From NCBI GenBank assembly GCA_021292165.1, contig CM037877.1, positions 303,742,063-303,806,062 of the forward strand: a DNA stretch of 64,000 nt. The letters are read 5' to 3'. The notes below the pieces were generated by a model. That model had not been told where the DNA came from and did not search any database. It saw only the letters and a program-made list of their open reading frames with translations. Both the position numbers and the translations under genes were made by a program. This DNA comes from Shinisaurus crocodilurus (lineage: Eukaryota > Chordata > Lepidosauria > Squamata > Shinisauridae). Below, piece by piece: positions 40,674 through 62,758 of this stretch (its first letter is position 1; the number at the start of each line of letters is the position of its first letter).

Positions 40674-40690
40674 CTACCCCCATCCCTAGG
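40674..40690 (-). other. Ty3 polypurine tract
   Basis: AGGGATGGGGGTAG directly abuts the 3' LTR and overlaps the pol stop codon (40,688-40,686); this would prime plus-strand DNA. Confidence 0.75.
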
Positions 40691-43600
40691 ACAGACCCCC
40701 TCCGGCCTCTCCCCCGGGACAGGTGTTGGCTGGGGGAGCAGAGAGAAATCCAAGGGGTGGCTTCCGAAGGCCCCCAAGCTCCTCCCGGACAGACCTTTGT
40801 TGCAGCCGCACACTCCTCCGGGTGGCCTCTTGCTGGATCTTCCGCTTCCACCGCCGGCGGTCCTGCAGGGGCAAAGGAGGTTCAGAGTCCAAATCGAGAG
40901 CTGGGTCGGTGGAGGGCACCACCACCGTGCCCGGGTCCAGTTGCCTAGATGTCCCAGGACGCGGAGGGGAGTCCGGCACAGCCCTGGGTGGAACAGGATC
41001 CCCCAGGGTAGGGTCCGCTGGCTGCTCGGTGGTGGTAGATGGTCCAGACTGCCCTGCTGGAAGTTCCCCGGAGGTATCTGGGTCAGGCCACTCCGAATCG
41101 TCCTCTTCGTCTGAGGACTCCATAGAGGAGCTGTCTGTGGGACCCGCAGGCGGTGGCAAGGGACCTGGCTTAGTCGGGTAGTGTGCATGGAAACGGCGGA
41201 CGAGACGTGGGGCATGCACCTGGGATGCATCCTCCCAGGAGCGGTCTTCTGGGGCATACCCCCTCCAGTCGATCAGGTACTGGAGCCGGCCCCGAAACTT
41301 GCGGGAGTCGAGAACCTGGGCGACTTCATACTCCTCCTCCCCATCAACCTCGATCGGCGGTGGGGGCCTGGAGCGGGTGCGCAAGGGGTGCGGCGGAGCA
41401 GCAGGGACCAACAGGGACCGGTGGAAGACAGGATGCACATGGAGCGACGCTGGGAGCTGCAACTGGAATGCCACGGGGTTGACCTGGCGGGAGATGGTGA
41501 AGGGACCGACATGGCGTGCATCCAATTTCCGGGATGGCCTCTGGGAACGGAGGAACCTTGTAGATAGCCAGACCCGGTCCCCAACTCGCAAGGGAGGACC
41601 CTCCTGGCGGTGGCGGTCAGCCGCCTTCTTATACGCTTCCTTGGCCAGGTCTAGTTGATCTTTCAAAACGGCCTTTACGGCATGCAACTCCTGGGCAGCA
41701 AGATTCGCGGCAGGAACTGCTGACGGGGGCAGGACTGAAGGGAAGAACCTGGGGTGATAACCGTACGTGGCGAAGAACGGAGTTAGCCGCGTGGAGACAT
41801 GCGTCGAGTTGTTATAAGCGAACTCCGCAAGGGGTAGGAGATCCACCCAGTCATCCTGCTGGAAGCTGGTGTAGCAGCGCAAGTACTGTTCCAGTGTCGC
41901 ATTTGTTCGTTCTGTCTGGCCATCAGACTGGGGATGATGGGCCGATGATAGATGTACTTCGACATCCAAAGACCGGAACAAGGCGTGCCAGAACCGGGAA
42001 GTAAATTGGGGCCCCCGATCCGAGATCAGGCAGTCAGGAAGGCCGTGGAGATGAAAGATCTGGGCAATGAACAGCTGAGCTGTCTCTCGAGCTGAGGGGA
42101 GTCCTGCACATCTTGCTGAACAGGTCCACCACTACCAGCACGGAAGTCTGGCCCCGGGACACGGGCAAGTCAGTGATAAAGTCCAGTGACACAGACCGCC
42201 AAGGTCCCTGGGGAGTTGGGAGCGGGACTAAGAGCCCCTGTGGGCGCCCCGGGTGTGCCTTCGCCCGGCGGCAGGTATCAGAGGCTGCCACATAGGCCTT
42301 GGCATCCGCCTGAAGTCGTGGCCACCAGAAGTCCCGGAACAGCAGGTGGAGGGTCTTGTAGGTCCCAAAATGCCCCGCCGGCCGACTGTCGTGGCATAGA
42401 TGCAGCGCCTCACCCCGGAGAGCACCTGGAGGGAGGTAGAGACGGTCCCGGTGATACAAGAGCCCCTCCAGCAAGGAGAACGGAGTGTCTAAGTCCGAGT
42501 TCCCAGCACGCAGGGCAAGGATGTGCTTCTGAGCAAACGAGTCCTGCTGTTGTTGCACGCGTGCTCGGTCCGCCAAGGACTGGGACGGTAGGGTGGCAGC
42601 AAAGTTCTCAGAAGGTAGGATGGAACGCAAAGGGGTCTCGTCTTTCCCCGCCAGGTACTCGGGCTTCCGGGACAGCGCATCCGCCTGTTTGTTGTGCCGC
42701 CCGGGTAAGTATGTCACGGTGAACTGGAACCGGGAGAAGAAGATGGACCACCGGACCTGTCGCTGGTTGAGGCGCCGGGCCGTCTGCAGATGTTCGAGGT
42801 TCCGGTGGTCCGTGCGCACCTGTACTGGGTATCGGGCCCTTTCCAGTAGATGGCGCCAAACCTCAAAGGCCACTTTAATGGCCAGCAACTCCTTCTCCCA
42901 CACGGTGTAATTCTGCTCGGAAGTCGTTGAGTTTCCGGGAGTGAAATGCACATGGGAGAAGGGTCTGGTCCCCCTCTACTGGTTGCAACAGTACAGCGGC
43001 CACGGCTTTGTCAGACGCATCTGCTTCCACGATGAAGGGTCGGGCCGGATCAGGCTGCTGTAAGATAGGCTCCGACGTGAAGGCCTGCTTCAGGTGCTGG
43101 AACGCCCGTTGGGCGGCCTCCGTCCACTGGAAGGGCCCTTTGGTGCGGAGCAGGTCCGAGATGGGTACAGTGAGCTGTGAAAAGTGGGAGATGAACCGGC
43201 GATAGTAGTTTGCGAAGCCCAGGAGACGTTGAACGTCCTTGATACTCCTTGGGGCCTGCCACTGTAGGACGGTCTGTACTTTGGCGGGATCCATCTGAAG
43301 TCCCGAGGGGGAAATGCGGTGGCCTAAGAAATCCACGGTGGTGAGGTCAAATTCGCACTTCTCGAGCTTGGCGAACAACTGGGACTCTCGCAGCCGCTGC
43401 AGGACAGTGCGTACATGCTGGACATGTTCCTGCGGGTTTTGGGAGTAAATTAAAATGTCGTCCAGGTAGACAATCACGAAGTGGTCTAGACAATCCTGGA
43501 AGAGGTCGTTCATCAGATGCTGGAAGACCGCGGGCGCATTACATAGCCCAAACGGCATTACGGTATATTCAAAGTGGCCGTACCTTGTACGGAACGCGGT

Positions 43601-44566
43601 CTTCCATTCGTCCCCTGCTCGAATGCGGACCAGATTATATGCTCCCTGGAGGTCCAGCTTGGTGAAGATTTGAGCGGCACGGAGCCTTTCCAGTAGTTCG
43701 GGGATCAAGGGCAGAGGGTACCTATTCCGCACAGTGATGCGGTTCAGGGCCCGGTAGTCATTGCACAGGCGGAGCTCCCCACATTTTTTCCTGACGAACA
43801 AGACGGGTGCAGCTGCTGGTGAAGTGGAGGGTTGGATAAACCCCCGCTGGAGGTTCTTCTCGATGAAGTCCCGCAGGGCTGCTAACTCTGGTTCCGACAG
43901 GGAGTAGATTCGACCCACCGGAATCTTGGCATCCGGAAGCAGGTCAATGGGACAGTCGTAGGGCCGACGGGGCGGCAATTGGTCGGCCTCCTTCTTCCCA
44001 AAGATGTCCCGGAAGTCCTGATACTTGAGGGGTAGCCCCTCCAGAAGTCCTTCCCCTTCAACGGACGAGCAAGCCTGCACTGTCTGGGTCAAGCAGCAGC
44101 CTCGGCAATGGTGTGAGGGAAATGTGATATGACCTGTTGACCACTGGATCAAAGGATCATGGCGCTGGAGCCAAGGCAACCCAAGGACCACCGGAAAATG
44201 GGGAGCGGCGGCCAGATACAACTGGAGGGTTTCCCGGTGCCCTTCCAAGTCCATGGTCAAGGGTTCTGTCTGTTGAACCACCGGCCCGGAGGACAACAGC
44301 CGCCCGTCGATAGTTTCCACAAGGACGGGGTGCTCCAGGAGTCGGCGTGGGACACGGTGCAGATCTGCGAAAGAGGCATCCATGAAGTTGCTGCTAGCGC
44401 CCGAGTCCAGCATGGCCTGGACTCGCAGGATCCCTTGCCCTGGAACTGTCAGGAGTATGGGCACCGTCACATGGCTGGCGGGAGAGGCTGGTGGGCATTG
44501 GGCTTCTGTGGAGTTGGTCTCACCCCGGCCTAGGGGCCCTTCAGGGCCGGGGCCTGGCAGTTTTCC
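40686..44566 (-). pseudogene. pol: Ty3 pol (protease, RT, RNase H, integrase, chromodomain), broken
   Basis: Three successive frames: to 42,875 (protease DSGA, RT with YLDD, start of RNase H), 42,951-42,034 (rest of RNase H, integrase zinc region, first catalytic Asp), and from about 42,090 to 40,686 (second Asp, Glu in 'DGQTER', chromodomain). Breaks lie near 42,930 (one extra base by eye) and near 42,100. The integrase HHCC motif has Ser in place of its first Cys ('AASDTC'). The chromodomain ('YLIDWRGYAPEDRSWE') is complete and would target integration to modified chromatin. About 160 further residues follow it, first acidic then basic, unusual because the chromodomain normally ends pol. 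The product is not expected to be functional. Confidence 0.9.
44523..44566 (-). promoter_or_regulatory. -1 ribosomal frameshift signal at the gag/pol junction
   Basis: GGAAAAC (44,566-44,560) in the gag frame G-GAA-AAC, a 7-nt spacer, then the 8-bp stem CCCCGGCC / GGCCGGGG (44,552-44,545 with 44,530-44,523) around a 14-nt loop. Pol is in the -1 frame relative to gag and overlaps it, so this is where a shift is needed. The heptamer is close to, not identical with, the classic X-XXY-YYZ form. Confidence 0.75.
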
Positions 44567-45435
44567 GGAAGCGTGCTGGCTCGGACCTTGGCGGGGCAAT
44601 GAGCGGCAAAATGTCCCTTCTGCCCGCAATACGGGCAGAAGCTGAGTTGCCGACGCCGTTGTTTCTCCTCAGGCGACAAGCGGGGGTGAGCTCCCCCCAA
44701 TTGCATGGGTTCTTCGGGTGAGGCGGGTTTCGGAATGGGTACCTCTCCCAGCAGGTTTCTGGGAGCGGGACCCCCAAGGCTGTGTCTGGAGCGGGAAAGG
44801 GCCCGCCGGCTCTCCACTCTCCCTTCTATTTTGAGGCAGAGGTGTATCAGGTCCTGCAATGTGGAAGGCCGGTCCGCATAAGTGAGCCCATCCAGTATTT
44901 CCCCAGACAGCCCCTCCTGGAATTGGTCTATGTAGGCCTCCTCATTCCACTGCAAGTCCTGCTGGAGCAGGCGGAATTCTGTCACATAGTCCACTAGGGG
45001 GCGCCGGGCTTGCCGTAGCTCACGGATGCGTTGATTGGCAGTGACTGCCTTCACAGGGTCCTCATACATGGCCTTGAGCTGCCGAGTAAAAGCAGCCAAG
45101 TCTCCCAACACCGGGCTCTGTTCCAGCAGCAGGGGAGTCGCCCATTTGGCCGCAGAGCCCGTGAGCAGGCTGATAAGAAACCCCACCTTGGTCTTATCAT
45201 CAGGGAAAGCCTCGGCCTTCAAGCTCATGAACAGCTGGCTCTGAGCCAAAAACACCAGGAGCTGAGCAGGTGTGCCATCAAACTTCTCTGGCACAGCTAA
45301 GGGGCATTTCTGCTTTCTCACTGGGACGGGGGGAGCGGCAGCAGGGGCCGGCTGGGCCTGCAAAGCCTGAACGGCTGCTATGAGTTGGGTTACCTGCCCC
45401 TGCAACAGCAGGTTGTCCTGAACAAGCTTTTCCAT
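44530..45435 (-). CDS. gag: Ty3 gag (capsid and nucleocapsid)
   Basis: Structural protein that would assemble the cytoplasmic particle around element RNA. From the ATG at 45,435 it gives 301 residues: an N-terminal helix-rich part with Gln/Ala/Pro stretch, a retrotransposon capsid region (residues of type 'PEKFDG', 'YVTEFRLL'), and a CCHC zinc knuckle CPYCGQKGHFAAHC near the C-terminus. The frame is open further upstream into the LTR (ATG at 45,528 or 45,585), so the exact start is uncertain. It ends at TAG 44,532-44,530, just past a -1 frameshift signal leading into pol. The layout is that of sushi-ichi and the domesticated PEG10/RTL family. This gag frame has no visible break. Confidence 0.88.
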   Translation of the reverse strand: MEKLVQDNLLLQGQVTQLIAAVQALQAQPAPAAAPPVPVRKQKCPLAVPEKFDGTPAQLLVFLAQSQLFMSLKAEAFPDDKTKVGFLISLLTGSAAKWATPLLLEQSPVLGDLAAFTRQLKAMYEDPVKAVTANQRIRELRQARRPLVDYVTEFRLLQQDLQWNEEAYIDQFQEGLSGEILDGLTYADRPSTLQDLIHLCLKIEGRVESRRALSRSRHSLGGPAPRNLLGEVPIPKPASPEEPMQLGGAHPRLSPEEKQRRRQLSFCPYCGQKGHFAAHCPAKVRASTLPENCQAPALKGP

Positions 45436-45481
45436 CTGGGGTGGCTGCTGCTGCTCCTTTCCGTTTTTATTTTGGTAAGTG

Positions 45482-45492
45482 GCTGGAAGCAA
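45482..45492 (-). other. Ty3 primer-binding site (self-priming type)
   Basis: TTGCTTCCAGC, two bases inside the 5' LTR, is not the 3' end complement of a tRNA (no TGG start). It is the exact 11-nt complement of GCTGGAAGCAA in the LTR at 45,712-45,702. Tf1 and sushi-type elements prime from the folded-back 5' end of their own RNA in this way. Confidence 0.75.
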
Positions 45493-45494
45493 GC

Positions 45495-45855
45495 TGTCGT
45501 AAATCCGCCCAGTGTCAAGATAAGCCATCCTCGTTATAACAGTCCGAGTGTCCAAGCCAAGATGTATTAGTCCAAAACCGAGCAAACGTAAACCAGTTAG
45601 GGGTCAGGCACAAGCGTAGTCAGGGTCGTTCCAAAGATCAAAGGTACAGGGGTCCGAGGTCAGGAATATCAAGAGCGTCTGGTGGTAGCTGTAACAAACA
45701 ATTGCTTCCAGCATCTGAGTGTGTTTGGGACCTGCCTTTTGAGCAGGTGCTGATTGGTAAGGCTGCCCAGCTGGGTCAGGCTGCAGTTAGCCTGACCCCA
45801 CCCCAAACACACTCCGGCACGGCTGGTCTCTGTCTGACCTACTGGAGGCACAACA
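45495..45855 (-). repeat. Ty3 5' LTR
   Basis: 361 bp; a CCAAT box lies at 45,757-45,753 on the minus strand. The predicted RNA start is near 45,714, judged from the self-priming complement at 45,712-45,702. Confidence 0.95.
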
Positions 45856-46555: not shown

Positions 46556-46702
46556 ATGTTCACCCTGGTTCTCTATCTCATATGGAAACTCTTGCAACAT
46601 TTCCCTAAGTGGAGTGAAGCGCTTGACTGGTTCCACAGAAACTGCAGGTGTCCCTCTGCCTTACTTGAAATGTTATCAATGCTTTCCCCAAGCATAGGAT
46701 GG
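46556..46702 (+). CDS. SPATA31/FAM205-like gene, first recognised coding exon
   Basis: ATG opens 49 codons ending exactly at a consensus donor (GG|GTAAGT), phase 0. The first 16 residues (MFTLVLYLIWKLLQHF) form a short hydrophobic, membrane-spanning-like segment, and a Cys pair (RNCRC) follows. Members of the SPATA31/FAM205 family begin with a small exon that encodes a hydrophobic N-terminus, which fits. The frame remains open upstream to an ATG at 46,472, so the start is not certain; a pyrimidine tract and AG just before 46,549 could make this an internal exon. Confidence 0.6.
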
Positions 46703-47830: not shown

Positions 47831-47873
47831 AAAAGCAGGCCGCGACAGCAGGAGACTGCCGAAGAGAGAGCAG
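47831..47873 (+). CDS. SPATA31/FAM205-like gene, 43-bp exon
   Basis: Acceptor TTCATCAG, donor GTAACC. Encodes KSRPRQQETAEERA plus the first base of a Gly codon completed by exon 3, so both junction phases agree. A short basic segment after the hydrophobic one is what this family shows at this position. Confidence 0.6.
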
Positions 47874-48355: not shown

Positions 48356-48396
48356 ATTAATTGATAATTAATTGGAGGCGTCCCTTTCCATTGCAG

Positions 48397-51300
48397 GTTT
48401 CAAGAGGCAGCTTTCTGCCAGGCCAGAAGATGGTGCTCCCCAGAGTACTTGTGTCAGCTCCATTCGTCAACTGCTGTGTGACAACGAGGGCTGCAAGGTG
48501 TGTGAGCAGGCAGCCCAGGAGGCCGCACGACTGATTTACTCCAACGGAGCACATGGTCATCATCCTGCTGGCCCGAGGTTCCCGCTCTCCCCCATGTCAT
48601 GCATGGAGTGCCACATCCTGCCTGTCGTCCCTAAAGAGAGAGGCCATGATTCCTTCCCACGGAGTGCCAGTGAGCCTGCTCCCGCCTCAGGCCATATTCT
48701 CCTTGACCCAGAGAGACCAACCTCATCAAGCACATCAACATATGTCCCCAGCTTTCCCATGGAGGAAAAAGAGAAAATCTTCCATGAGCCAAAGCACGAT
48801 CTTGATGCCTGGGAGGAGCACAGTGACTTTTCTGGTAACCAAGTTGATACCACATCTTCTTCGAGCACATATGAGACGTCTCTCATTAGCTGCATGGAAT
48901 CCTCTTCTGGCCTGTCTGAGTTCTCTGGCAGTAGCTTGAGGGAGTACAGTTCTATGAAGCACCTAACAATTGCCCATAAACAGCAGAGGCGCTATAGAGA
49001 CTCCTCCCGGGCTGACAGTGAGGCCTTTCCAGAGTCCCAGACGAGTGAAAACCAGAGTGAGAGGTTCTTTTTCCAGCGGTCACTACGAGAGGCCAACCAT
49101 GGCATACTACATAAGAGAAAGGCACAGAGAGCACAGAGAGAAGCCGTGCACAGGGCAATGACTCTTTCACTGCCAGCTGGAACCAGCTGGGACCAGAACA
49201 TAGAATTTACACCTATGGATCTTCCCTTTGTGGAAGAGACTGTGATTGCGAGCTTGGAGTTACACTTGGTGTCAAAGAGAGTGCAGCATCTCATGGGGCT
49301 GCCCTCAGCACTCCTCAGGTCTCTCAGAAGCTTCGTGCCCTCTGCTCCATATTCAGCTCCCAAGAGGCGCCTGTGTGAAGTTGTGGTGGCTGACAAGGCC
49401 TGAGGCCCTCTCCTTTGTGCTTGTGCACACCAGGAAGAATCTGGAGCGGCACCTGAAGAAAATGGTTCAGCTCAAGCACTGGCAACTACCCAGGAGGATG
49501 CAAGAGACCCTCAGGCACATGGAGCCTTCCTTTCAGTCAAGGCAGGAGATGCCTCCTTCAGCAGCCCAACAGCAGAGGCCCAGGGACACAAGTCATGCAA
49601 GAAGAGAAAGAAAGATGCAGAGAACCATCACAAGGCTGCCCACCAAAGCTGAGGTCTTGGACTCCAAAACCACTGCAGGCTCCCAAGCAAAACTCCAGCT
49701 CCACTTTAGAAAGAAATCCTTAGAGATGAGGCTGGAGACCTTCCCTGCAATTGTGCGGCATTCTCAGAAGATGACTAGTGAAATGCCCAGGAGAAGGCCT
49801 CTGCCGAAACTTATCCCCCCTGGTCGAGTCTATCCTCAGTTGAGGAACAGTCTGTGCTTGAGCCTTCGGGGGAAGGCAGACACTGTGGAGATGAACATTA
49901 AGTCCAAATGTATCCACTTCCTGTGGGGGCTTCCAACACTGCACATGCAGTCCCTGCGCAGGTTTGCCCCCAGTGCCCCTCCATTGCCAGTTTCTCCTTC
50001 CTGGCCACATGTCTTTGCTGAATGTGGCTATGCAGAGCCTCCTATCTTCGCACAGAGTGATGGGAAGTACCTGGAGAACCATGTCCTCAGGAAGAGGCTT
50101 CAGCACCAGTGGGGCCTGCCTGGCCTGGTACAAGCGGTCCTTGAAAAAGTTCCTCTTGCCTGCCCCACCACCATCAACTCGCCTTGGCCCTGTGCTCCAT
50201 GACCAACTTGAAGTTCAGATGTCCATTGACATCAGCAAGTTCTTTTTCATCAGCTCAGAGATAAAGCAGCAGCTGGAGAGCCACCTCAGGAGCAAGATCG
50301 CAGAGAGGCGGTGGGGTCTCCCCAGACGTGTATTTGAGTCCCTGCAGGTATTCATTCCAATGTCTCCCCCACTGATCAAGAGAGACAAAGAGGATGGGAA
50401 GGCCTTTCCATTACCTCTGATAGAGAAAATGAAGAAGCAGACACCTTCCACAGTGTTGCTAAGCTCTTCCAAGAATCCTGCTATCTCTTCAGGGGTTAAT
50501 TCCCCAGAGCTGAGCTGGGATTGGAAGCGGCAGGTCCTGCAAGCCAAGCTGGCCAAGAGATCTCTTCAGATCCAGATGGGCACGGTTGTTCCTGTGGCTC
50601 AGCAGTCTTGGGAAACTGCTTATGGCATGTCAACACACAAGCTCCCCAGACTAATTCCATCTGGGTCGAGATATGTAAAGCCAAGATCCCAGCAGCTCCT
50701 CTTTGTGGATCAGGATGTTCTTGGTCACATCCAACTAAACATCATCCACAAAGTCCTGACCTACAGGTGGGGGCTATCCACTATATTCAATAAGTCCCTC
50801 ACCCAGCTATTTCAGGATATTGCACCACCAGTCACCACTGACCACTTGCCCCGCAAATCTGCCGTGTCCAGCTTCCCTGAAAGAGAGACCCTGTTTCTTG
50901 ACCAGAAAACTCGAGAGGCAATGGAGTGGCATGTGAGGAGGAAAGCTGTGCAACACACCTGGGGGCTCCCTGGCCTCATTCAGAGATCCCTCCAGTACCT
51001 TCTGCCAGCCACACCCCATACTCATCTCCAGAAGACAAGACACAGGGAGGTGGCTGTTTTCCCCGTGGAGCTCACCTTCCTCAGTAATGCCACCAAATGG
51101 GCCCTAGAGAGAAATGTGCAGAGAATTGTAATCCATCGGCAATGGCTACTGCCTATGAGAGCCCTTGAGCCTATGAGGCTGTTCTATCGAAAATATGGTC
51201 TTGGCCACAGGAAAGCCCCAGAGCCCTGGCATGCAGGTGCTGAAAGTGAAGAGCTGAATAGCAAGACGTCCAAAAGGAAGGTTGCTGCAGCCCCGGCCCC

Positions 51301-54300
51301 ACATCTGCTTTTCTCTCCGCAGACAGAGGTCCGGGACAAGCTGAAGCTTCACCTGGCTAAAAAATGTTTGGAGATGCACTTGGAAGCTTTACCTGTGGCC
51401 GTTACAGTTTCCAGGCAGTGCATGTTGTCCTTTTTGAGATGGCCGCTCCCCAAGATGATCCTTCCAGGCCACAAGCCTTTGCTGCCCCGCAGGACTTTGT
51501 TGCCATTTGCGTGCAGAGAGGATGTGGATCGGATTGACTTAGCTGTGCTACGCAGCCACTTGGCATCCTTGTGGGACCTGGGCACCCACTATGTGGAGGT
51601 GCTTAGAGGAATGAGGCCCAGGCCACTGTCCCAGCCTCCCAGACGGAGAGGGACCGCCTTCATCTTCACTGATGTTCAGAAGCCACTCCCTCCAGGAATC
51701 GATAGAGACATTTTAGAACTTCATATCCAAAAGAAGACAATCCAGCACATGTGGGGCTTTCCAGTCCTTATCCAAAGGTCACTCAGGGGCTTCATTTGTG
51801 AGCCACCTTTGCTGCCTTCCTCAACCAAGACAAAAGACTGTGTCCATATCCTGGCAGAGGAGCTATTGTTCCTTCCCCGGTGCATCTGCAACCAACTGGA
51901 ACTCCATGTGCAGAAGATGAAACTGCTCCGCCTTTGGGGATTGCCAGGAAGGGTTCTTGAGTCCCTGAGGATGCTACAGCCAGGTGGTCCCAGGCAAAAA
52001 TTACCCTTTGAACAAATGAGGAAAAGTGTGTCCAGCAGAGCTGTCTCCAAGAACCTCCCTGGACCCCCATTTATGGGTGCTCTATGCTCCGACTGCATAG
52101 GATCCAAGAACCTGGTGAAGATTCAGCTCCACTTGGCTAAGAAATGTCTGGAGGTACACTTGGGGGTTTTCCCTGCTGTTGTCATGCACTCTTGGAGATG
52201 TACAGTATTGACCTCCAGACAACCTCTCCCCAAGTTGCTCCCCCGTGGCCACAAGTCCTTGCAGCCTCGAAAGTTATTTCTACCCTTTCTACACAGTGAG
52301 GAGGCGGAACGGCTGGAGGTGTCTGTGCAGCGTTGCCACTTGAGTTCCCTCTGGGGACTGGGCAAACGGTATGTGGAGACCATAAATGCAATGACACCTG
52401 GGACACACGCCCAACATCTCCAGTGTGGGAGGGCTGCCCCTGAGTTCTCGCAGGTGCATATACTGTTTCTGCAGCGACCGGACCAAGAGTTCTTGGAACT
52501 GCATGTTAAGAAGAAAAGGCTTCAGCATCACTGGGGCTTCCCAGCCATCATCCAGAGTTCTCTCAAGGCCTTCATGCAAGGTTTCCTCCCAGACCCTGTC
52601 TTCTGCAACACCAAGATCCATGTCCAAACCCTGCAGCAGGAGCTCTTGTTCCTTCCTCCAGGCACCAGGAGCCACCTGGAGCATCACGTCCAGAGGCTGA
52701 AGGTGCGGCGGCGGTGGGGGCTGCCCAGAAGGGTCCTTGAATCCCTGAGGTCGCTGTTCCCAGAAAATGAAGGTGGTGGCCCTTATGAAAGGAAGAAGAC
52801 GCCGTCAGTGACATGCTTTTCTCAAGAGCTTGGCTTCAGGATAAAACCTTGGGCCATGGATGCCATAAGTACCAAGCAGGACAGGATGAGAGCCAGAAGA
52901 ATGGGGGATGAATCTCTACATCAGGATCGGCTACACCTCAGACTAATATCTGAGGCCATGGAGAAGATACAGCTCCACCTGACTAAAAAATTTTTGGAGA
53001 TAAAACTGGAAGCTTTCCCTGCTGCCCCAAGACTCTCTCAGAGACTTGCTTTGTTGTCACCCCACCAGACCCTCCCAAAGCTAATCCATCCTGGTGTGAG
53101 GCTGCCAAAACCCCGTAGTGCCTCCTTCTCATTTGGCCTGGTGGAAATGGGTCAGATTGAACTGGCCTTGCGGCGTAGCCACTTGGCCTGTCTGTGGGGA
53201 CTCGGGACACGCTATGTGGAGGGTCTTACTGGGATAGGACCCAGGCAGCCCTTCCCTCCAGTCAGATTCAGAAGGGCTCCCATATTTGAATTTTCAGAAG
53301 TGAAGGCACCATTCTTCCAGGGGTGGGCCAGAAAGGTCTTGGACCTGCATGTCAGGAAAAAAAGGATACAACATGAGTGGGGGATTCCTGCCCTTGTGCA
53401 GAGGTCACTCCAGGGCTTTATGTGGGAAACACCCACACTGCCTGGTCATTCCAAGACTGTGATTGAGATCTACGTGCTGCATCAAGTGTTGACGTTCCTT
53501 CCCCAGGACATCTGTGGCCACCTAGAGCTCCACATTCAGAGGATGAAGCTGCAGCGGCGATGGGGCTTGCCAAGCAGAGTCCTCGAGTCCTTGAAAATCT
53601 TCCTCCCCTCTCCTCCTCCCTGGAAAGGGACTCTGCTTCCTCAGAGTGACAAGGAAAATAAATTTGCAAAGGCAGGATACGGCACTGGAGAAGCTCTAAA
53701 GATTTATGCGAGGGGGATGAAGACCAGTGTGCCCCCCCCAAAGAAAGATGCCTTGGAGGAACACCTCAGGAGAAAATATCTTCAAATATGCCTGCAGGCA
53801 CACCCTGGCCTATGGCATCAATCTCAACGAGCAGCCAGTGAACAGGAATGGAAATTCCTCCCCAAACTGGTCCATGCTGGACAAAAACCTCCTAAAAGCA
53901 GAGCTGTTTCCATGTTCTTTTTGCCACCAGGTAGCATGGATATGTTGGAACTGAATGTGAAGCATAAACATTTGGCTTTCCTGTGGGGGCTGCCGAGCAA
54001 ACACATGGAAGCACTGTCTATGGTGGTCCAAGCAAGATGTTCCCCGATGCAAATCAGTCAGCTGAGCACTGGATTCCAGCAGCTGGAGACTCCTTTCATG
54101 CAGGAGAAGGCAAGACAAATGTTGGAGCATCACATTCAGAAGAAGAGACTTCACCATTTCTGGGGCTTGCCCTCTGCAATCCAACGGTCCATTCAAGCCT
54201 TTTCACCCCCCTCATCCATTTACACCCATCTACCACAGAGAATAGGCCAGGAAATAACCATTCGGGTAGAGGATCTGCTATTTGTTTCTGAGCACGTTCA

Positions 54301-57300
54301 GAAGAACCTGGAAATCAGCGTGAAGAAGATGATCTTTCGTGGCCAATGGGGGCTCCCCAAAAGATTGCATAAGTCTCTACGTAGTTTTGCTCCCTCTCCT
54401 GTAGGAGGCAGAGAACGGCAAGAGGAAGAACCAATGGGCAGGGACACTCTTGCCCGTGGTCCTGAGTTGAAAAGAGCACAACATATCACTAGGTCTCCAC
54501 AGGCAATGTGCCTCAATACTGCGTGCAGGAAGGCTTCTTTAGAGCCGTCAGTGAGCCCTTCTCCCATTGCAGGACATCTCAAAGATCCAAAGAGGAGTAA
54601 TCTGGAAACCCATCTCAAGAAAAAGTCTCTGGAAATTAAATTCCAATTGATGGCGAGTTATAAGGTATTTGCCATGTCAGTCAAACTCCCTAAACTCCCT
54701 AAACCTCTCTCCCTTTCTTCCATGGTAAAATCCAGAAGTTCTTTTCTGCTTTTTGTGGAGCAGCAGGCTCTAGTAAAGATTCAGGTGAACATCCATCACA
54801 AGTATCTAACATACCTTTGGGGCTTCCCCAGTTTGCACACAGAATCCCTGAAAAAGATGTTTGGAAAGGTTCCAGAACAGACACTGTCTAGAAAAGCTAT
54901 GGTAGTAAGAGGATCGCTGTTCCAAAAAGCAGCTCTAGAAAAGGCAACCCACCAAGAGTGTCTGGCAGCAAAATCCACCGGTGTTGGAGAAACAGGATGC
55001 AAATACTCTAAGCTGCCATCATCTTTCCTCACAGATGCAGCCTTGGATCTTCTGGAAATGCATGTTCGACGCAAGAAACTGCAGCATGAGTGGGGCTTGC
55101 CATCAGCCATTCAGAAATCCCTTCATGCATTTGCTCCATTCCCCTCAGAATCACAAACATCTTCAGCAGGAATGGGCATTGCTGCCACCACATGCCCATG
55201 GAGTGAAGTAGATGTCAGGGTCAAAATAACCCAGGACCTGCTGTTCTTGGATCCAGTCAAAATGGGGCAACTAGAGGCACATGTGAAAAGACAAACTGCA
55301 GTACACCGGTGGGGCCTTCCCAAACAGGTTCGGGAGTCGCTGAAGAGGTTTCTGCCCCCTGTGTCCCTTTCCCAGGTGGATGGAAGCAAGGGTCAAGACC
55401 AAATGCCACCATGCACTTGTGACCAAGTCCTCCAAGCAGAAGGCTTACAGCACAAAGTCAGGGCTGGAAGAGTTCCTCAGAGGAGGGGCCCAGTAGAGGA
55501 GGATGGTGATTGGCAGATCCTCCCCAGATCAGGAGGACATCCTGTGAAGCCATCTCCAGGAGAAAGGAACCAAGATAAGACAATGAGGCCTGGGCAAGAG
55601 ACTCCAAAGATGAAGTTTTGCCAGGGGACAGTGGTTGGAACCTGCCATACAAAAGAGGCCTGGGACCATTTAGAATTCCACATGAGGCGCAAAAGGATCC
55701 AGCATGAGTGGGGGCTGTCATCCATTGTGCGGAAATCCCTACATGCCTTTGCCTCGCAGCCACCTGAGCCACAGAGCACAAAGGCCAGAGCAGCAACCTG
55801 TGTCACCCCTGAGAAATTGAGGGGCCAAGGGAAAGCGAGTGGTGCTGTCCAGATACCACAGACTTTAGCGGAGGTGATGATCCCCCACCAGCTCCTCCGT
55901 TTTTTGCGTACAGATGCCAAGAATTGTCTGGAGTCCCACTTGAGGAGTTGGGCCACAGAGCACAAGTGGGGACTTCCCAAACGGATTCAAGACTCCCTGA
56001 GAGCAATTGCTCCATCCCAACTCAAGACCTATCACAAAGCCCACCACCAGCAGTGTGAAATCCATTCCCATTCCAAGGGAGAAGAGTCACTGAAGCTGTC
56101 CCTGCCCAGAAAAGGAGCCAAACAAAATCCGAAGGAGATGATCCAACAAGGGCAACGGACGACAGTGACACACGCGTGCCCTGAAGTATCTCTTGAGGTA
56201 AAGCTGCGTTACCTCACAAACAAGGAATGGAATCTTCTGGAATTCCACATCATACACAAGAGAATCCAGCATGCGTGGGGCCTGCCCTCCATTGTGCGGA
56301 AGTCCTTGCATGACTTTACCTTGTTTCGCCTTGATTCCAAGAAGCACATGCAGGAAAGGATAACTAAGGCTCATCCATGGAACAGGGGAGAAGTGAAAAC
56401 CACTGTCCAGAGACTTTTGCTCCTCAGTTCAGATACAAAGGAGTGCCTGGAGGCCCACATGAGGAGAATGATTGTAAAGCACCGGTGGGGAATGCCAAAA
56501 CAGGTTCAGCTATCACTGAGGGGGTTTCTGCCCCCCAGACAGCTTTCCCAATCTGAACAGTATCATAAACGGCCTCTACAGCTTTGTCAGGACAAAACTT
56601 TCCAGGGGGCAGCAGATGGTCCCCAAACTGGAGATGCCATTGACAGCTCATTGGAAGGGGCCAAGGCAAGGAGCTTTAAAATGACTGCTTCTGTATGGCC
56701 TGAGGTGAAGCTGAGGTTTCTCACAGATGTGGCCAGGGGTTACCTGGAATTCCATGTCCAACATAAGAAGATCCAGCATACGTGGGGTTTTCCCTCCATT
56801 GTGCTGAAGTCCTTGAAAGCCTTCAGGAACTTTCCCCTTGACATGCAGAAGCACATGCAAAGCTCAGGAGAGAGCATGACCAAGACACATCATCAGTGGG
56901 ATAGGGGAGAAGTGCAAATCGTCGTCCAGGGTCTCTTATTCCTGAGTTCAGACACAAAAAGGGATCTGGAAGCTCACCTAAGGAGGAGGACAGTGGAGCA
57001 CAGATGGGGTCTTCCTAAACGTGTTCAGGAGTCACTGGGGGGATTTCTGCCTCCCAGTCTGCCTTCCCAATCTGAAGAGTGTCATGGACAGCCTCTATTG
57101 CTTCGTCAGCGCAAGTCCTCCCAGATGGCTACAGATGATTCCCAGGCTGAAGATGACAATGAAGATGCACTGGAAGAGGTTGAGGCCAAGAGAAAGACAA
57201 TAAGGAGAGAAGAGTTTTTCCATCCAGGGGAACAGGGAGCAACTACGCCTGCGAGCTTCAAAGGATGTGTTTTCTTAGGGCCTGAGGTGAAGCTGCTCTT

Positions 57301-60300
57301 CCTCCCAGATGAGGCCAAGAGTTACCTGGAATTCCACATCCAACGTAAGAAGATCCAGCATACATGGGGTTTGCCAGCCACTGTGCTGAAGTCCTTGAAT
57401 GCTTCCCCCTCCTTTCCCCTGGAGATGCACGAGCACGGGCAAACTACAGGAAAGAGCATGGCCAAGTGGGATAGTAGTGGAGAAGTGCAACCCGTTGTCC
57501 AGAGTCTCTTATTCTTGAGTGCAGACAGAAAACAGGATCTGGAAGTTCACATAAGGAGGAGGACTGCAGAGCACAGGTGGGGTCTTCCGAAATGGGTTCA
57601 GCGGTTACTGGGGGGATTTCTGCCACCCAGACCCCTTTCCCGATCTGAAGAGGATCATGCACAGCCTCTATTGCTTGGTCAGTGCAAATCCTTCCAGATG
57701 GCTACAGATGATTCCCAGGCCGAAGATGACAAGGAAGATGCTGAGGCCAGGAGAAGGATAACAGGGGAAAAACAGATCTTCCACCCAGGGAAACCAGGAG
57801 CAACTACAGCTGAGAGCTTCAAAGCAGGTGTTTTATTATGTCCTGAGGTGAAGCTGCCATTCCTCACAGATGAGGCCAGGGGCAATCTGGAATTCCACAT
57901 CCAGCATAAGAGGATCCAGCATGCATGGGGCAAGCCCTACACTGTGCTGATGTCCCTGGGCGCCTTTGCCCCCTGGACCCTTGAGACGCAGAAGCACCTA
58001 CATGGCACGGGAGAGAGCACTGCTGAGAAATGCCCGTGGGATAGAGGAGAAGTGCGTATTGTTATTCAGAGTCCCTTGTTCCTCAGCCCGGACATAAAAG
58101 AGCGCCTGGATGCCCATGTGAGGCATGTGACTGCGGAGCACAGGTGGGGCCTTCCAGAACGGGTTCAGCAATCGCTGAGGGCTTTTCTTTCTCTGAGGCC
58201 TCCTTTGCGATCTGAGCTGGATCGAGCACAGCCTCTATTGCCAAGTCTGTGTGAGTCCGTACAGGTGCCTGCAGCTGATTCCCAGACTGACGATGACAAT
58301 ACGGACTCACTGGAAGAGGCCATGCCCAGAAGAGAGGAACTGGAGTGCCAAGATTGCCGTGTGAGAAAGGTGATAGCAATAACACCTGTACGCACTGAGG
58401 CACCTAATTTCCTATGGCCTGAGGTGACGCTGCCTTTCCTCATGGATGAGGCCTGGAAGCTTCTTGAATTCCATATCCAACGCAAGAAACTCCACCATAC
58501 ATGGGGCCTGCCCTCCTCTATTTTGAGGTCTCTGCGTGCCTTTGCCCCATTTCCCCTTGAGCTACGGAAGCACCCACCGGCCAGAGAAGGAGAGATTACA
58601 GCCCATAAGCTTCCACGGGATAGGGAAGTACACATTATTACTCAGAGCCCTTCATCCCTTTGCCCAGGCACAAAAGATCACCTAGAAGCTCATCTGAGGA
58701 GTAAGACTGCAGAACATAGATGGGGCCTTCCAAAACAGGCTCGAGAAACACTGAGGACAATTCTGCTTCCTGTGCCACCTTGCCACTCTAGAGAAATCAG
58801 GCCCCAAACTCAGCCCCGTGATGATAAATCTCATGAGGTCTCTTTTGCCCAAGGCCAGCTAAAGGCTAGCTGCTCATTGAAGAAATCCCAGGACAGGAAA
58901 GAAGCACCAGAGAAGCTGGAGGAGTGGGAACTGGTGGCAACAGACCCATCTGAAACCTTAGCCATGACCCATTTTACAGACTGTGCAATGGAGTTGCCTT
59001 TCCTTGCTGATGGCGCCTGGAAGCTCCTGGAATCCCACATCCAACGCAAAAAGATCCAGCATGAATGGGGCCTACCAGCCACTGTTCAGAAATCCATGCA
59101 TGCCTTTGCTCCCGTTCCCAAGGAACTGCAGGAGAGGCCAAAATCTGCAGCAGGAGCGAGCACTGAAGCAGGGAGACCCAAGGGCATTGGTGTTGCAGGA
59201 ATGAGAGATGGTGCCCATAAATGGTTGAGACTGAGAGTAAAGGAAGTCAGTGTCGCTGTCCAGCACCTGCAATTCTTGCATACAGGCACACAGAGACATC
59301 TGGAAACCCACATCAGAAATCTGACCCTGGAGCACAGGTGGCGCCTCCCTAAACTGGTTCAGGAGTCAATGAGGGCATTTATTCCTCCAGCTGAAGAGGA
59401 GGAGGAGGAGGAGGAGGAGGAGGAGGAACAGCATTCAGTGAGTTACTGTGGTCAGGCTTTTGAAGGTTCAGGTGCCCCGTTTCAGAGAGAAACAGAAAAG
59501 AAACCCAGCTCAGGCTCAGAGAACCCACCTATATACCGCTCAGAACTGTTTTATAAAGTCAGCCAAGATAGGGGAACAGCTTCTTGGCTTGATACTGAAG
59601 AGCCATCTTTCTGTCCGGTTACAAAAACCCGGCATTACACAGCGATCCAAAGGACAAGTGGGAGCCAGGAAGCCAAGAGAGATGCACCCCAAATGAGCCC
59701 CCTGCAGAAGAAACCTTTGCAGATATCGATGGTGAAGTTACATCTGAAGAAAGACATACAAATGCAGAGTTCAGGGATTCCGTTTTCTTCCAAGGTGTCA
59801 CTTAAGAAGAGAATTCCACAGCAGCTGAAATGCAGCTCCAAGACAAAGGCAGACAAGAGCCCCCAACGGGTTGGGCTGAAGCAGCCTCAGTCTCCAGTTG
59901 CTTCAGATGTTGGCTGGAAGCTGGCAGGGACTTGTAATATAGCCACGTGTGCTTGTAAATGCCATTTTCCACCACCATCTAGGAAAGACTCAGTGCCCTC
60001 ATTGCAATCAGTTGCAGAGCAAAGACAGAGACAAGAAGGAGTCCAGGGAAGGGGAAAAGAGGTGAAGAAGGCAGGGTCCTCTTCTCTGCCATCAGAAGAT
60101 AGCGAACCCCAAAACTCTGGCTCGGCAAAGGAGAAAGATGCAAGTTCCTCTTCTCTGCTATCGGAAGATAGTGAACCCCAAAAGTCTGGTTCAGCAAAAG
60201 AGGTGGAGCCAGAATCCTCTTCTCTGCCATCAGATCATGAACCCCCAAAGTTTGCTTTGGGAAAGGAGATAGAGGTAGGATCATCTTCTACATCATCAGA

Positions 60301-62758
60301 AGATAATGAACCCCAAAAGTCTGGTTCAGCAAAGGAGGCGGAGCCAGGATCCTCTTCTCTGCTATCAGCAGGTATTGAACCCCAAAACTCTGCTTCAGGG
60401 AAGGAGGGAGATCCAGGATCCTCTTCTCCATCATCAGCGGGCAGTGAACCCCAAAACTCTGCCTCAGCAAAGGAGATGGAGCCAGGATCCTCTTCTCTGC
60501 CATCGGAAGACAGTCAATCCCAAAACTTTGATTCAGCAAAGGAGATGGAGCCAGGATCCTCTTCTCTGCCATCGGAAGACAGTCAACCCCAAAACTCTGC
60601 TTCAGCAAAGGAGACAGAGGCAGGTTCTTCTTCCCTGCGGTCAGAGGATAACTTACCCCCTAGCTCTGATTCATCTTCAGGAGAAAACATGAGCGACAAT
60701 GCTTGCTTCCCAGAACACGAAACTACCCAGGTATATCCAAGGCCTTTGGAAGCAGATGTTGCTCAACAGTACAACACTCTCACCTTCCAGCAAGCCTTGG
60801 ACTCCTCCATTCAGCCATCCCATGCCACTGAATCGCATTCTTCCTATGAGGACATTGTGGCCAGGCATTACAGCCAGGCAGGTAGAGAGGGCCAGGCAAA
60901 ACTGAACAGCAGGCTGCAAAGAAAAGGAAGCAAACTTGGCTGGAGCAGGAAGAAGAGAAAGGAACTGACCTTCCAAATTCTGGGAGATGCACCTTCTGAC
61001 ATCTATGACACAGGGCACCAGGCATCTTCTACAGTTGGACACCTAAAGGGATGGTCCTCTGAGTTCCGGTTTGAGAAATGCCATAGCCCCAAACCTCCAC
61101 TACTCCCGAAAAGAAGTGAGGAGGACCCTATGGAGCATACAGTCCACCAAAGTAGCCAAGCCTCTGAAGGGAGCAAAGAAACGTCAACTGAGGAATCAAG
61201 TCAGTCCTACCAACAGGTGTCTCTTGTGTCTCAAAATCGAGATTCCATGGATGTAGAAGGTGCACTCCAAACGCATCTGGAACATGGTTTGCTGATGCCG
61301 ACAGATGATGACATGGCAAAGGCAAAGGAGGATGGTGGCGCCTGCATAACCTCCAAGAAGTTGGGGGGCCTGCCTCAATTCAGCACAAAATGTGTGTGGG
61401 AGAGAGCTGGAAACCAGGACAGTCACAAGGAAGCTATCACAGGAAGCAAGTGGGTGGGAAAGGAGACGGGCAGCAGCAGCAAAGATGCAGACGAGATGCC
61501 CAACGAAGAGTTTGCAAGGCCGAGATGTGCAGATTCCCTGACAGCTAATCCATTGCAAACATCTCGAAATCACATGGCTCCTACCCCTACCTCAGCTGTC
61601 TTATTTAGGGAAGCAAGAGCCATCCTTGGCAATATGAAACTACACATCATGACAGCTTCCAAACCACCTGAGCATCTAACTGCACCTCAGTCAGCCAAAA
61701 ATAAAATGACAGAAGCCCCGCTGCCCCCAAGGCAAAGCTCAGCATTGTCCAGGAGTGTGCTTTGCCAGGAGAAAATGCATGCTTCAGTAGCTGTAGAGCA
61801 GAAACAGATCTTGGTGTATGGTGGCAAGAGAGAAGGAGCTGTTCTTGGAGAGGCATCCACAATAGAGCCTGAAGGTGGCAGGCACCCAAGAGCTGAGAAG
61901 AAGAAGGAGAAAGAACAAATGTTGAGTTGGGGAACAGAGGTATCCCCAAAAGAACCCCTTGCTGGCAAAGGACCATTAAGGGATCATGAGCGCAGCCAGG
62001 TATTTAGGACGCCAAAAGGAGAAGAGGTCCTTTGGTCAGAACAAGCCCAGCTCAGCAAGGAGCCTAGCGCTGAGAGATTCTCCATCCTTAGTAGCATCCT
62101 GGAGAGGAAACTGTATCTGCAGCAGGGGCTGAAAATCTGGAAGCAGAGCCGTGGAGGTGCAGGGCTCGCTTCCGAAGAGAAGAGCAAGAAAGGGGGCTCC
62201 GGCAAAGAGTGGCGTGGAACGAGCGGCATGGAAAGCCAAACCAGAGAAAGTCATAGAAAGAGAAGTGAGTTGGCCCTGTCGAGGTCCAGGGACAGGCAAG
62301 GAAGGATGAGGGTCCCAGGTGTGTTGTTTGGGAGCAGGGAGAGGGGGGCTGTCAGTGAAAGAAGCCAGCCTGAGAGAAGACAGGGGGCATCGTTCAGAAG
62401 GGATGAGAAATCTATCAGCAGGAAAGGGAGATCATCCCTCACGACACTGAGGTCGAGCAGCAGGTCAAGAGACAGAGGGAGCAGCAGGGCAACCAGCCGG
62501 GACCAGCGATCGAGCAGCAGATCAAGGAGCAGGACGAGGCGCGGATCAAGGAGCAGGGCAAGCAGCAGGTATCCTCGATCCAGCACCGGGGAGAGCAGTA
62601 AAGTGAGCAGCAGGGAGAGAAGCTCAAGGAGCACGGCAAGCAGCAGCAGAGATCCTAGATCGAGCAGCAGGGACCGGAGTCGAAAGAGCAGTGGGAGCAG
62701 AGGATCCAGGAGCAGGGCCGGAAGCAAAAGCAGTGAGATCCCACGGGGGGACACCTGA
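48397..62758 (+). CDS. Giant SPATA31/FAM205-like protein, last exon (44 WGLP-type modules)
   Basis: Acceptor CCATTGCAG at 48,396; stop TGA at 62,756. It begins with a family-typical Cys motif ('IRQLLCDNEGCKVCEQA'), then a Ser-rich stretch, then 44 modules of pattern LExHIxxKxxQHxWGLPxxVxxSLxxF to about 59,390, a Glu run, nine Ser/acidic repeats and an RS-rich tail. Mammalian SPATA31 proteins carry only a few such motifs and act in spermatogenesis, with suggested DNA-repair roles; the function of this large form is unknown. The frame runs 48,397-49,403, then shifts near 49,395-49,405 and again near 50,130, each equal to one surplus base. From 49,964 to the end it is uninterrupted for 4,264 codons, so selection has kept it open. 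If the breaks are errors the protein has about 4,850 residues; otherwise it is a recently damaged gene or starts downstream. Confidence 0.85.
49205..54890 (+). repeat. Coding repeat: seven A-B-C-D module quartets
   Basis: Period about 780-930 bp. A: 'LELHIQKKTIQHMWGFPVLI'. B: 'LELHVQRMKLRRWGLP'-like, preceded by 'LLFLP'. C lacks WGLP and reads 'IQLHLAKKCLEVHLGVFPAV'. D reads 'IDLAVLRSHLASLWDLGTHY' and mostly lacks the Pro. A modules begin near 49,210, 50,040, 50,890, 51,665, 52,445, 53,285 and 54,085. The first quartet and the start of the second span the two frame breaks. Confidence 0.85.
55010..59393 (+). repeat. Coding repeat: eight A-B module pairs
   Basis: Period about 505-605 bp; A starts near 55,015, 55,620, 56,190, 56,695, 57,285, 57,840, 58,420 and 58,985. 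A is 'LEFHIQRKKIQHTWGLP', B is 'LEAHLRRRTVEHRWGLPKRV'. Linkers of pairs 4-6 share 'FQMATDDSQAEDD', showing recent duplication. C and D modules are absent from this half. Confidence 0.88.
59394..59430 (+). repeat. Poly-Glu codon run
   Basis: GAG/GAA triplets encode 13-14 Glu directly after the last module, marking the end of the array. Confidence 0.9.
60071..60691 (+). repeat. Coding repeat: nine 22-residue Ser/acidic units
   Basis: Period about 66-69 bp; unit 'GSSSLPSEDSEPQNSASAKE'. The Ser-Ser-x-x-Ser-Glu-Asp core matches casein kinase 2 sites by pattern. Units 7 and 8 are nearly identical over 80 bp. Confidence 0.9.
62430..62755 (+). repeat. C-terminal RS-rich domain
   Basis: About 109 residues dominated by Ser and Arg ('RSSSRSRDRGSS', 'SRSRSRTRRGSRSRASSR'), ending shortly before the stop codon. 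Such domains are SR-protein-kinase substrates and favour nuclear or ribonucleoprotein locations, which contrasts with the hydrophobic N-terminus. Confidence 0.85.

What the first reader, a model, noticed from the sequence alone, without database searches (positions are those of the whole stretch)
49205..59393. A 44-module protein with a strict seven-quartet plus eight-pair grammar
Reading the translation module by module gives A-B-C-D repeated seven times, then A-B repeated eight times, with no exception in order. A and B carry HxWGLP; C and D are diverged relatives. Such an array in a SPATA31/FAM205-like protein is far larger than the few motifs I know in mammals. It implies two phases of growth: an old four-module unit multiplied, then a two-module unit multiplied. 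Regular length suggests a repeat-solenoid or scaffold rather than an enzyme.
Basis: partly seen in the sequence, partly recalled or inferred. Interest (0 to 1): 0.95.

Follow-up and report, generated by a model that had tools for sequence, protein, structure and literature searches.

The report
Ancient patterned repeats in SPATA31-family protein
A reptile gene of a sperm-protein family encodes 44 small repeat units in a strict order and, within blocks of four, at a near-constant spacing that turtles and a coelacanth share, which suggests that the few motifs in mammalian relatives are remnants of a large ancient repeat protein.

Summary
Forty-four ~41-residue modules lie at 49224-59392 (+) in the order (ABCD)7(AB)8; leave-one-out class HMMs assign 44 of 44 to their own class. 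The gene is SPATA31/FAM75 family (PF14650, E to 9.5e-73). Two corrections. The array is not one frame: breaks near 49390-49397 and 50130-50135 leave 39 modules in the 4287-aa frame and 5 outside. And it is not unique: HMMs trained on the window alone find the same order in the four squamate proteins, one turtle protein and one of two coelacanth models tested (0 of 10,000 label shuffles). Nine mammalian SPATA31F1-type proteins keep 6-7 modules. New here: a near-fixed pitch outside mammals. C-D, D-A and A-B steps have medians of 58-63 residues; B-C steps are longer and variable (0 of 239 within 55-66). I read the natural block as C-D-A-B and the layout as AB(CDAB)7(AB)7. Two-phase growth is supported: quartets are collinear with skink and gecko proteins, pairs turn over faster, though some pair order is kept. 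Structure models are poor. Best reading: a membrane-anchored multivalent scaffold. Expression, partners and integrity are untested.

The parts
46556..46702 (+). candidate first coding exon: 49 codons with a hydrophobic stretch (MFTLVLYLIWKLL...), ending at a GTAAGT donor
   Evidence: read by eye; resembles by eye the N-termini of P0003, P0007, P0011 printed, where no tblastn row shown reached it (that output was cut); splice sites and membrane segment not tested by a predictor
47831..47873 (+). candidate second coding exon, 43 nt, basic
   Evidence: read by eye: CAG acceptor, GTAACC donor, phase agrees with exons 1 and 3; not tested
48397..62758 (+). candidate last exon, about 14.4 kb, carrying the Cys motif, the array and the C-terminal tail
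   Evidence: start read by eye; homologue N-termini match from 48372-48426 on and tails up to 62203
48456..48539 (+). DUF4599-like cysteine motif (SIRQLLCDNEGCKVCEQAAQEA)
   Evidence: Pfam PF15371 E 0.0017, 19.1 bits, below the gathering score 34; turtle P0023 52% identical over 48456-48599
49390..49397 (+). first frame break (between modules A1 and B1)
   Evidence: homologue proteins P0003, P0004, P0008, P0045 continue from one frame to the next
50130..50135 (+). second frame break (inside module A2)
   Evidence: same four homologues
49224..49980 (+). quartet 1, A1 B1 C1 D1 (frame changes after A1)
50041..50821 (+). quartet 2, A2 B2 C2 D2 (frame changes inside A2)
50891..51625 (+). quartet 3, A3-D3
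51683..52405 (+). quartet 4, A4-D4
52463..53248 (+). quartet 5, A5-D5
53309..54037 (+). quartet 6, A6-D6
54092..54871 (+). quartet 7, A7-D7
55022..55363 (+). pair A8 B8; possible counterpart of the terminal AB of turtle proteins (would close the seventh CDAB block)
   Evidence: for: the D-to-A step before it is long here (91 aa), as is the last one in P0008 (97), P0003 (85), P0004 (87) and the turtles shown (82-94); against: its A-to-B step is 73 aa, as in the pair zone, while the turtles shown have 62
55637..59392 (+). seven further pairs A9 B9 to A15 B15 (amplified zone)
59396..59427 (+). GAG microsatellite coding a poly-Glu run just after the last module
59393..62758 (+). C-terminal tail, about 1120 aa, Ser-rich with an SR-like end, short patches shared with homologues (YEDIVARHYSQAG; RFSILSSILERKLYLQQGL)
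60072..60650 (+). 69-nt tandem repeat, 8.4 copies, in frame in the tail

Best explanation
The window holds a squamate gene (by its nearest relatives) of the SPATA31 (FAM75) family whose last exon encodes an ancient modular array. Shown: four related module classes in fixed order; C-D-A-B runs with a pitch of about 60 residues, joined by a longer, variable B-to-C linker; the same order and spacing in turtle proteins and one coelacanth model; quartets older and positionally stable, pairs turned over more since. Inferred: the block is C-D-A-B and the layout AB(CDAB)7(AB)7; each module is a short helical hairpin (helix of about 19 residues, WGLP turn, helix of about 10) that offers one docking surface; A/B-type and C/D-type modules offer different surfaces; the constant pitch sets them at regular distances, so the protein acts as a membrane-anchored, multivalent scaffold or ruler in developing sperm, holding many copies of its partners (beta-actin and syntaxin are the partners reported for mouse Spata31) along one chain, while the N-terminal hydrophobic segment fixes it to a membrane and the Ser-rich tail stays flexible. 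Copy number would then set length and valency.
For: Family: PF14650 E 9.5e-73, 3.2e-45 and 2.1e-11 on three of four pieces. Order and classes. Same order with HMMs trained on the window alone, ten proteins tested: turtle P0023 21 of 21 cyclic steps, coelacanth P0022 27 of 37, squamates P0016 33 of 34, P0008 31 of 34, P0001 31 of 37, P0003 30 of 39, each 0 of 10,000 shuffles; salamander P0035 and P0037 10 of 14 (5 and 12 of 10,000). Pitch: C-D medians 58-61 and D-A medians 60-63 in squamates, turtles, coelacanth and salamander; A-B followed by C median 61, quartiles 60-62, n=159 in squamates; B-C medians 87-100 in all five groups, 0 of 239 within 55-66. A-B linkers from steps of 60-63 residues carry a weak common pattern v.v..qeL.FL, the 26 residues before C modules next to nothing. 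Constraint: between copies mean pS 0.69-0.75, pN 0.35-0.47. Hairpins. Partners and mouse knock-out infertility: PMC5338094, passages.
Against: Structure models are poor (pLDDT 58.6 and 40.0, pTM 0.28 and 0.20), and no solved relative was found. No expression or binding data for any reptile. The partners were reported for mouse Spata31, not this array, and are not mapped to modules here. The frame is broken twice near the 5' end. Mammalian P0041 and the second coelacanth model P0034 do not follow the order better than shuffles (8307 and 2654 of 10,000); mammalian C-D steps have a median of 91 residues; several squamate proteins are irregular.
Confidence: 0.55

Rival explanations
1. The window copy is a recent pseudogene: the two frame breaks end translation early, and the long open frame is a leftover.
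For: Two frame changes within about 0.75 kb, neither an intron, in the part that joins the array to the N-terminal exons.
Against: The remaining 12.9 kb is open over 4287 codons; copies show pN well under pS; the four homologue proteins compared run across both places. Annotated snake and cordylid models also begin late or skip the first quartets (P0005, P0010, P0007), so the first quartets may be dispensable, or assembly error may be common there.
Confidence: 0.25
2. The array is a continuous alpha-solenoid: modules stack on one another as in TPR or HEAT proteins (recalled).
For: Near-constant pitch of about 60 residues along C-D-A-B in squamates, turtles, coelacanth and salamander; helical modules.
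Against: Linkers of about 20 residues, often with Pro just after the A and D modules; models of low confidence (pTM 0.20 and 0.28); longer and variable B-C step.
Confidence: 0.2
3. The array is a slackly constrained, mostly disordered protein whose copy number drifts by unequal crossing-over, without a counting function.
For: Low identity to homologues (28-44% in the squamate rows); pair number differs between species; low pLDDT.
Against: Order and spacing kept in lizards, turtles and one coelacanth model; near-invariant positions, e.g. H 97%, K 98%, P 97% in 351 A modules; pN below pS.
Confidence: 0.2
4. A nuclear DNA-damage role, as proposed for primate SPATA31A.
For: Primate SPATA31 relocalises from nucleolus to nucleus after UV (PMC5338094, abstract and passages); SR-like tail here.
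Against: The authors describe this as a primate acquisition of other domains; the N-terminal hydrophobic segment points to a membrane (by eye). Pfam found no photolyase or topoisomerase domain in the four pieces scanned.
Confidence: 0.07

Closest known systems
Squamate proteins annotated SPATA31F1, FAM205A, hypothetical or uncharacterized (P0008 Lerista, P0003 Paroedura, P0004 Gekko, P0007 Hemicordylus, P0001 Podarcis)
   Same: Same class order; similar spacing in P0008, P0003, P0004; N-terminal Cys motif and C-terminal patches in those compared; P0008 has 25 of 28 quartet modules best matched at the same index
   Different: Quartet and pair numbers differ: (ABCD)6(AB)8 in P0003, (ABCD)6(AB)7 in P0001, (ABCD)7 then ABAABAB in P0008; the window frame is broken twice
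Turtle proteins with PF14650 (P0023-P0026, P0030-P0033)
   Same: Order and pitch; (ABCD)5AB or (ABCD)4AB, i.e. AB(CDAB)n
   Different: No amplified pair zone in these eight
Mammalian SPATA31F1/FAM205A and SPATA31D1 (P0041, P0065-P0074)
   Same: PF14650 and DUF4599 in the three scanned here, P0065, P0066, P0073; modules BABCDC in seven of the nine F1-type proteins, BAABCDC and BDABCDC in the other two, hits of 3 bits or more
   Different: 6-9 modules; spacing relaxed (C-D median 91); P0041 irregular
Alpha-solenoid repeat proteins (TPR, HEAT; recalled)
   Same: Short helical repeats in long arrays
   Different: No sequence match to any solved structure; linkers of about 20 residues; four classes in alternation

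Membership tests
SPATA31/FAM75 (PF14650) | Pfam PF14650 match above the gathering score 24 | tested here: met
   246.3, 155.7 and 44.4 bits on three of four pieces
SPATA31/FAM75 (PF14650) | N-terminal DUF4599 (PF15371), seen in mammalian members P0065, P0066, P0073 | tested here: inconclusive
   19.1 bits, gathering score 34; but tblastn with P0001, P0003, P0011, P0019, P0023 N-termini matches there; mammals
SPATA31/FAM75 (PF14650) | short first exon with a membrane segment, long last exon (recalled) | tested here: inconclusive
   read by eye, N-termini of homologues alike by eye; no splice or membrane predictor used
SPATA31/FAM75 (PF14650) | testis expression | not testable with these tools
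   no transcript data on hand
SPATA31 subfamily F (SPATA31F1/FAM205A) | one-to-one orthology with the mammalian gene | tested here: inconclusive
   mammalian F1 module order fits a remnant of this array, but the nearest full-array relatives bear several names and several squamates have more than one such protein; synteny not tested
alpha-solenoid repeat proteins | repeats stack into a continuous superhelix | tested here: inconclusive
   models of pLDDT 58.6 and 40.0; no Foldseek match at E 10 or better for the better model

The most novel reading that the evidence does not exclude
The SPATA31 family descends from a giant fixed-pitch ruler protein of early lobe-finned vertebrates or older, built of CDAB blocks of four different docking modules at 60-residue steps with a hinge between blocks. 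Coelacanth, turtles and squamates keep it; squamates added a second growth zone of AB pairs; mammals reduced it to a remnant that Pfam calls one FAM75 domain. Module number would be a dial for the length or valency of a sperm scaffold, changing between species while order and pitch stay fixed.
Probability: 0.4. Interest if true: 0.82.

Novelty: new variant of a known kind. Interest (0 to 1): 0.64.

Why it matters
SPATA31 genes show strong positive selection in hominoids, and mouse Spata31 is needed for male fertility (PMC5338094, abstract and passages); no solved structure matched the array here. If the 'FAM75 domain' is a remnant of a class-ordered, near-fixed-pitch array, its unit of structure and binding becomes clear (one 60-residue module, or one CDAB block), and it can be made and tested. 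It also gives a case in which module order and spacing are kept between coelacanth, turtles and lizards while sequence and copy number change fast.

Tried and rejected
Intron instead of frame break: rejected, the four homologue proteins compared continue across both places with at most a residue or two unaligned. A 45th, decayed C module in the tail (VKLHLKKDIQMQ..., near 59732), suggested by eye and by the last C of mammalian SPATA31F1-type proteins: best window scores -2.0 and below, not supported. C or D remnants in the pair linkers: none above -3 bits. Origin of the pair zone from the terminal AB of turtles, tested with HMMs of terminal, first and internal turtle modules: mixed, inconclusive; inside the window the pair A modules are on average nearest to A7 and the pair B modules to B2. 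Solved relatives: none by sequence, single or profile, none by Foldseek (weak model; the six-module model was not searched). NCBIfam, a prokaryote library: none. The third homologue search (alignment of five proteins) added only P0075 and P0076, which were not put through the module scans. Among the named rows no bird, crocodile, shark or ray-finned fish came up, but the searches were bounded by length, shared words and candidate number, so absence is not shown. Species not identified. Part of the output was cut and not seen.
Full report
What is there. The window (64,000 bases, no N) holds on the + strand a 4287-aa open frame, 49895-62758, preceded by two overlapping open frames, 48372-49403 and 49246-50202. 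Pfam finds FAM75/SPATA31 (PF14650) on three of the four pieces scanned, at E 2.1e-11, 9.5e-73 and 3.2e-45, and a weak DUF4599 match (E 0.0017, below its gathering score) on the first piece. By eye a coding exon 46556-46702 with a hydrophobic stretch and a 43-nt exon 47831-47873 join in phase to a last exon starting at 48397. This model was not tested by a predictor, and no tblastn row seen reached the first exon (that output was cut). N-termini of homologues match within 48372-49397 and their tails within 59435-62203.

Check of the observation. Forty-four modules were placed by exact match: order ABCD seven times, then AB eight times, without exception, 49224-59392. Because I had given the labels by position, I tested them by leave-one-out: 44 of 44 modules scored best with the HMM of their own class. 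The narrowest are A3 (55.7 against 52.5 for B), C7 (15.7 against 10.6) and D1 (32.9 against 27.5). No class HMM scored 10 bits or more anywhere else in the six frames of the window (best -2.2). Profile comparison supports common descent of A, B and D (probability 97-99) and, less firmly, of A and C (64.5 with window profiles, 94.5 with wider ones; column-shuffled controls 0.2-3.1 in five trials); C against D alone is not significant.

Correction: frames. Module A1; modules B1, C1, D1 and A2; and modules B2 onward lie in three different frames. Proteins of four homologues (P0003, P0004, P0008, P0045) run on from frame to frame at about 49390-49397 and 50130-50135. So these are breaks, not introns; whether they are assembly errors or mutations cannot be told here. 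The unbroken frame holds 39 of 44 modules.

Homologues. A search with the array gave 41 proteins: squamates, turtles, coelacanth (P0022, P0034), the salamander Pleurodeles (P0035-P0040), one mammal (P0041) and two without a name. A second search gave 33 more, ten of them mammalian, SPATA31F1/FAM205A-like or D1. HMMs trained on the window alone were tested for order on ten proteins: P0016 33 of 34 cyclic steps, P0023 21 of 21, P0008 31 of 34, P0001 31 of 37, P0003 30 of 39, P0022 27 of 37, each 0 of 10,000 label shuffles; P0035 and P0037 10 of 14 each (5 and 12 of 10,000). Against: P0034, another gene model under the same coelacanth locus name (5 of 14; 2654 of 10,000), and mammalian P0041 (1 of 5; 8307 of 10,000). 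Some squamate proteins are irregular (P0006, P0009, P0018, P0028) or lack some C modules (P0012, P0015). Of nine mammalian SPATA31F1-type proteins, seven read BABCDC, the others BAABCDC and BDABCDC, at 3 bits or more; rabbit D1-type P0073 reads BAABCB. The F1 order fits a remnant of one to two quartets.

Near-fixed pitch. Distances between module starts (modules of 8 bits or more; steps outside 30-250 residues dropped; 74 proteins) are: C to D within 55-66 residues in 142 of 155 squamate, 51 of 51 turtle, 10 of 10 coelacanth and 16 of 16 salamander steps, but 0 of 9 mammalian; D to A 138 of 160, 37 of 52, 10 of 10 and 12 of 12; A to B 202 of 323, 61 of 61, 8 of 8 and 22 of 23, mammals 5 of 11; B to C 0 of 239 over all five groups, medians 87-100. 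In squamates A to B followed by C has quartiles 60-62 (n=159), and A to B followed by A a median of 70 (n=120). The 41 proteins of the squamate group include three without a name. Related sequences are not independent (the two coelacanth models, the turtle set), but the same values in lizards, turtles and coelacanth are hard to explain without constraint. The residues before a B module after A (steps of 60-63 chosen) show a weak common pattern v.v..qe|L.FL, and D-to-A and C-to-D linkers other patterns; B-to-C linkers show next to none. I therefore read the natural block as C-D-A-B with a hinge between B and C. The layout AB(CDAB)n also explains why the eight turtle proteins P0023-P0026 and P0030-P0033 end in AB: (ABCD)5AB is AB(CDAB)5. 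In the window it would be AB(CDAB)7(AB)7. The last D-to-A step is long in the window (91), in 11 of 37 squamate proteins (80 or more; ten of these carry pairs after the last D) and in all 12 turtle proteins counted (82-94); it is 59-62 in P0005, P0007 and P0010 and 59 in P0022. This makes A8 B8 a likely counterpart of the turtle terminal pair. Against that, the A8-to-B8 step (73) is of the pair-zone kind, while the turtles shown have 62.

Two phases of growth. Against skink P0008, 25 of 28 quartet modules find their best match at the same index; against Gekko P0004, 20 of 28; pair modules 3 of 16 in each. Against P0003 (one quartet fewer) 12 of 28, order correlation 0.94; against lacertids P0001 and P0002 15 and 18 of 28, correlation 0.54 and 0.45; against Anolis P0012 13 of 28, 0.59; against P0007 and P0005, whose models lack the first quartets, no significant correlation. 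Pair modules are not without order: their correlation is 0.85 with P0003, 0.77 with P0001, 0.71 with P0002, 0.70 with P0005 and 0.59 with P0008, but not significant with P0004, P0007 and P0012. In eight squamate proteins (seven homologues and the window), the nearest relative of an A or B module lies in another species for 73 of 85 quartet modules and 61 of 111 pair modules (49 own, one tie; Fisher p 5e-6). The exceptions among quartets are 6 of 12 in P0001, 4 of 14 in P0004 and 2 of 14 in P0008. All 14 window quartet A/B modules are nearest to another species, and 11 of 16 window pair modules too. So the quartets seem older than the split of these lizard families, while pairs have turned over more since. 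Where the pairs came from is unresolved.

Selection. Nei-Gojobori comparison of copies within the window gives mean pS 0.74, 0.69, 0.75, 0.73 and pN 0.35, 0.39, 0.43, 0.47 for A, B, C, D (105, 105, 21, 21 comparisons). The youngest copy is A11B11/A12B12 (Ks about 0.3, Ka/Ks 0.67 and 0.49). This speaks for long coding constraint, not for the present state of this copy.

Structure. AlphaFold2 with 13 pair sequences gave pLDDT 58.6, pTM 0.28: per module a helix of about 18-20 and one of about 8-10 residues with WGLP at the turn. A six-module stretch with 11 sequences gave similar helices at pLDDT 40.0, pTM 0.20. These are hints only. No match in the PDB by sequence or fold.

Mechanism. [quoted passage not shown] From another's passages (PMC7436996): SPATA31D1, D3 and D4 are testis-specific in humans. 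From a passage of PMC12807706: SPATA31G1 and H1 were named after a PF14650 match. I infer a membrane-anchored, multivalent scaffold in developing sperm, with modules as docking sites at regular steps. The order, pitch and history are shown; anchoring, binding and the counting role are inferred.

In print. Searches naming SPATA31, FAM75, FAM205 and single members, SPATA31 with lizard (two papers, by title on pig semen traits and on repeats in the human genome), with squamate, reptile and tandem repeat (10 of 3,171 listed, none holding SPATA31), with coelacanth or turtle (8 of 423 listed, none holding SPATA31), and for the domain names (four papers) showed no title or abstract start on such an array. 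Only listings were seen for these, apart from passages of PMC5338094, PMC7436996, PMC12807706 and PMC4254261; the library lacks most subscription journals.

One search was added to recount last D-to-A steps and mammalian strings.

Noticed in passing
18632-19366 and 25266-25880, - strand: Pieces of a TRIM gene: PRY-SPRY exon and RING plus B-box exon; another open frame at 21711-22154 lies between and looks coiled-coil-like by eye.
   Followed up: partly
15159-16354, + strand: C2H2 zinc-finger coding stretch spread over three overlapping open frames (two of them scanned): either decayed or with frame errors, like the array's 5' end.
   Followed up: partly
40686-45603, - strand: Ty3/gypsy-type element with gag, protease, reverse transcriptase, RNase H, chromodomain and a sub-threshold integrase match, about 1 kb upstream of the candidate first exon.
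   Followed up: partly
60072-60650, + strand: In-frame 69-nt tandem repeat (8.4 copies) coding a Ser/Glu-rich tail repeat; a second kind of repeat in the same protein, less diverged at DNA level.
   Followed up: no
P0022 and P0034 (coelacanth): Two models under the same locus name differ by about 24 modules (40 against 16): copy number depends on assembly or annotation.
   Followed up: no
P0005, P0007, P0010: Snake and cordylid models start at, or skip to, modules of the second or third quartet; the first quartets may be unstable or hard to annotate in several lineages.
   Followed up: partly
P0006, P0009, P0061: Squamate proteins made mostly of AB pairs, for which PF15856 (DUF4727) is listed, as it is for turtles P0023, P0024, P0026, P0047; a Pfam scan of P0006 put DUF4727 below its gathering score and P0023 gave none. 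May be another subfamily.
   Followed up: partly
P0024, P0075: Turtle entries with PF14650 that are fused or named as receptors (7tm domains listed for P0024; 'EGF-like module-containing mucin-like hormone receptor' for P0075): likely annotation errors.
   Followed up: no
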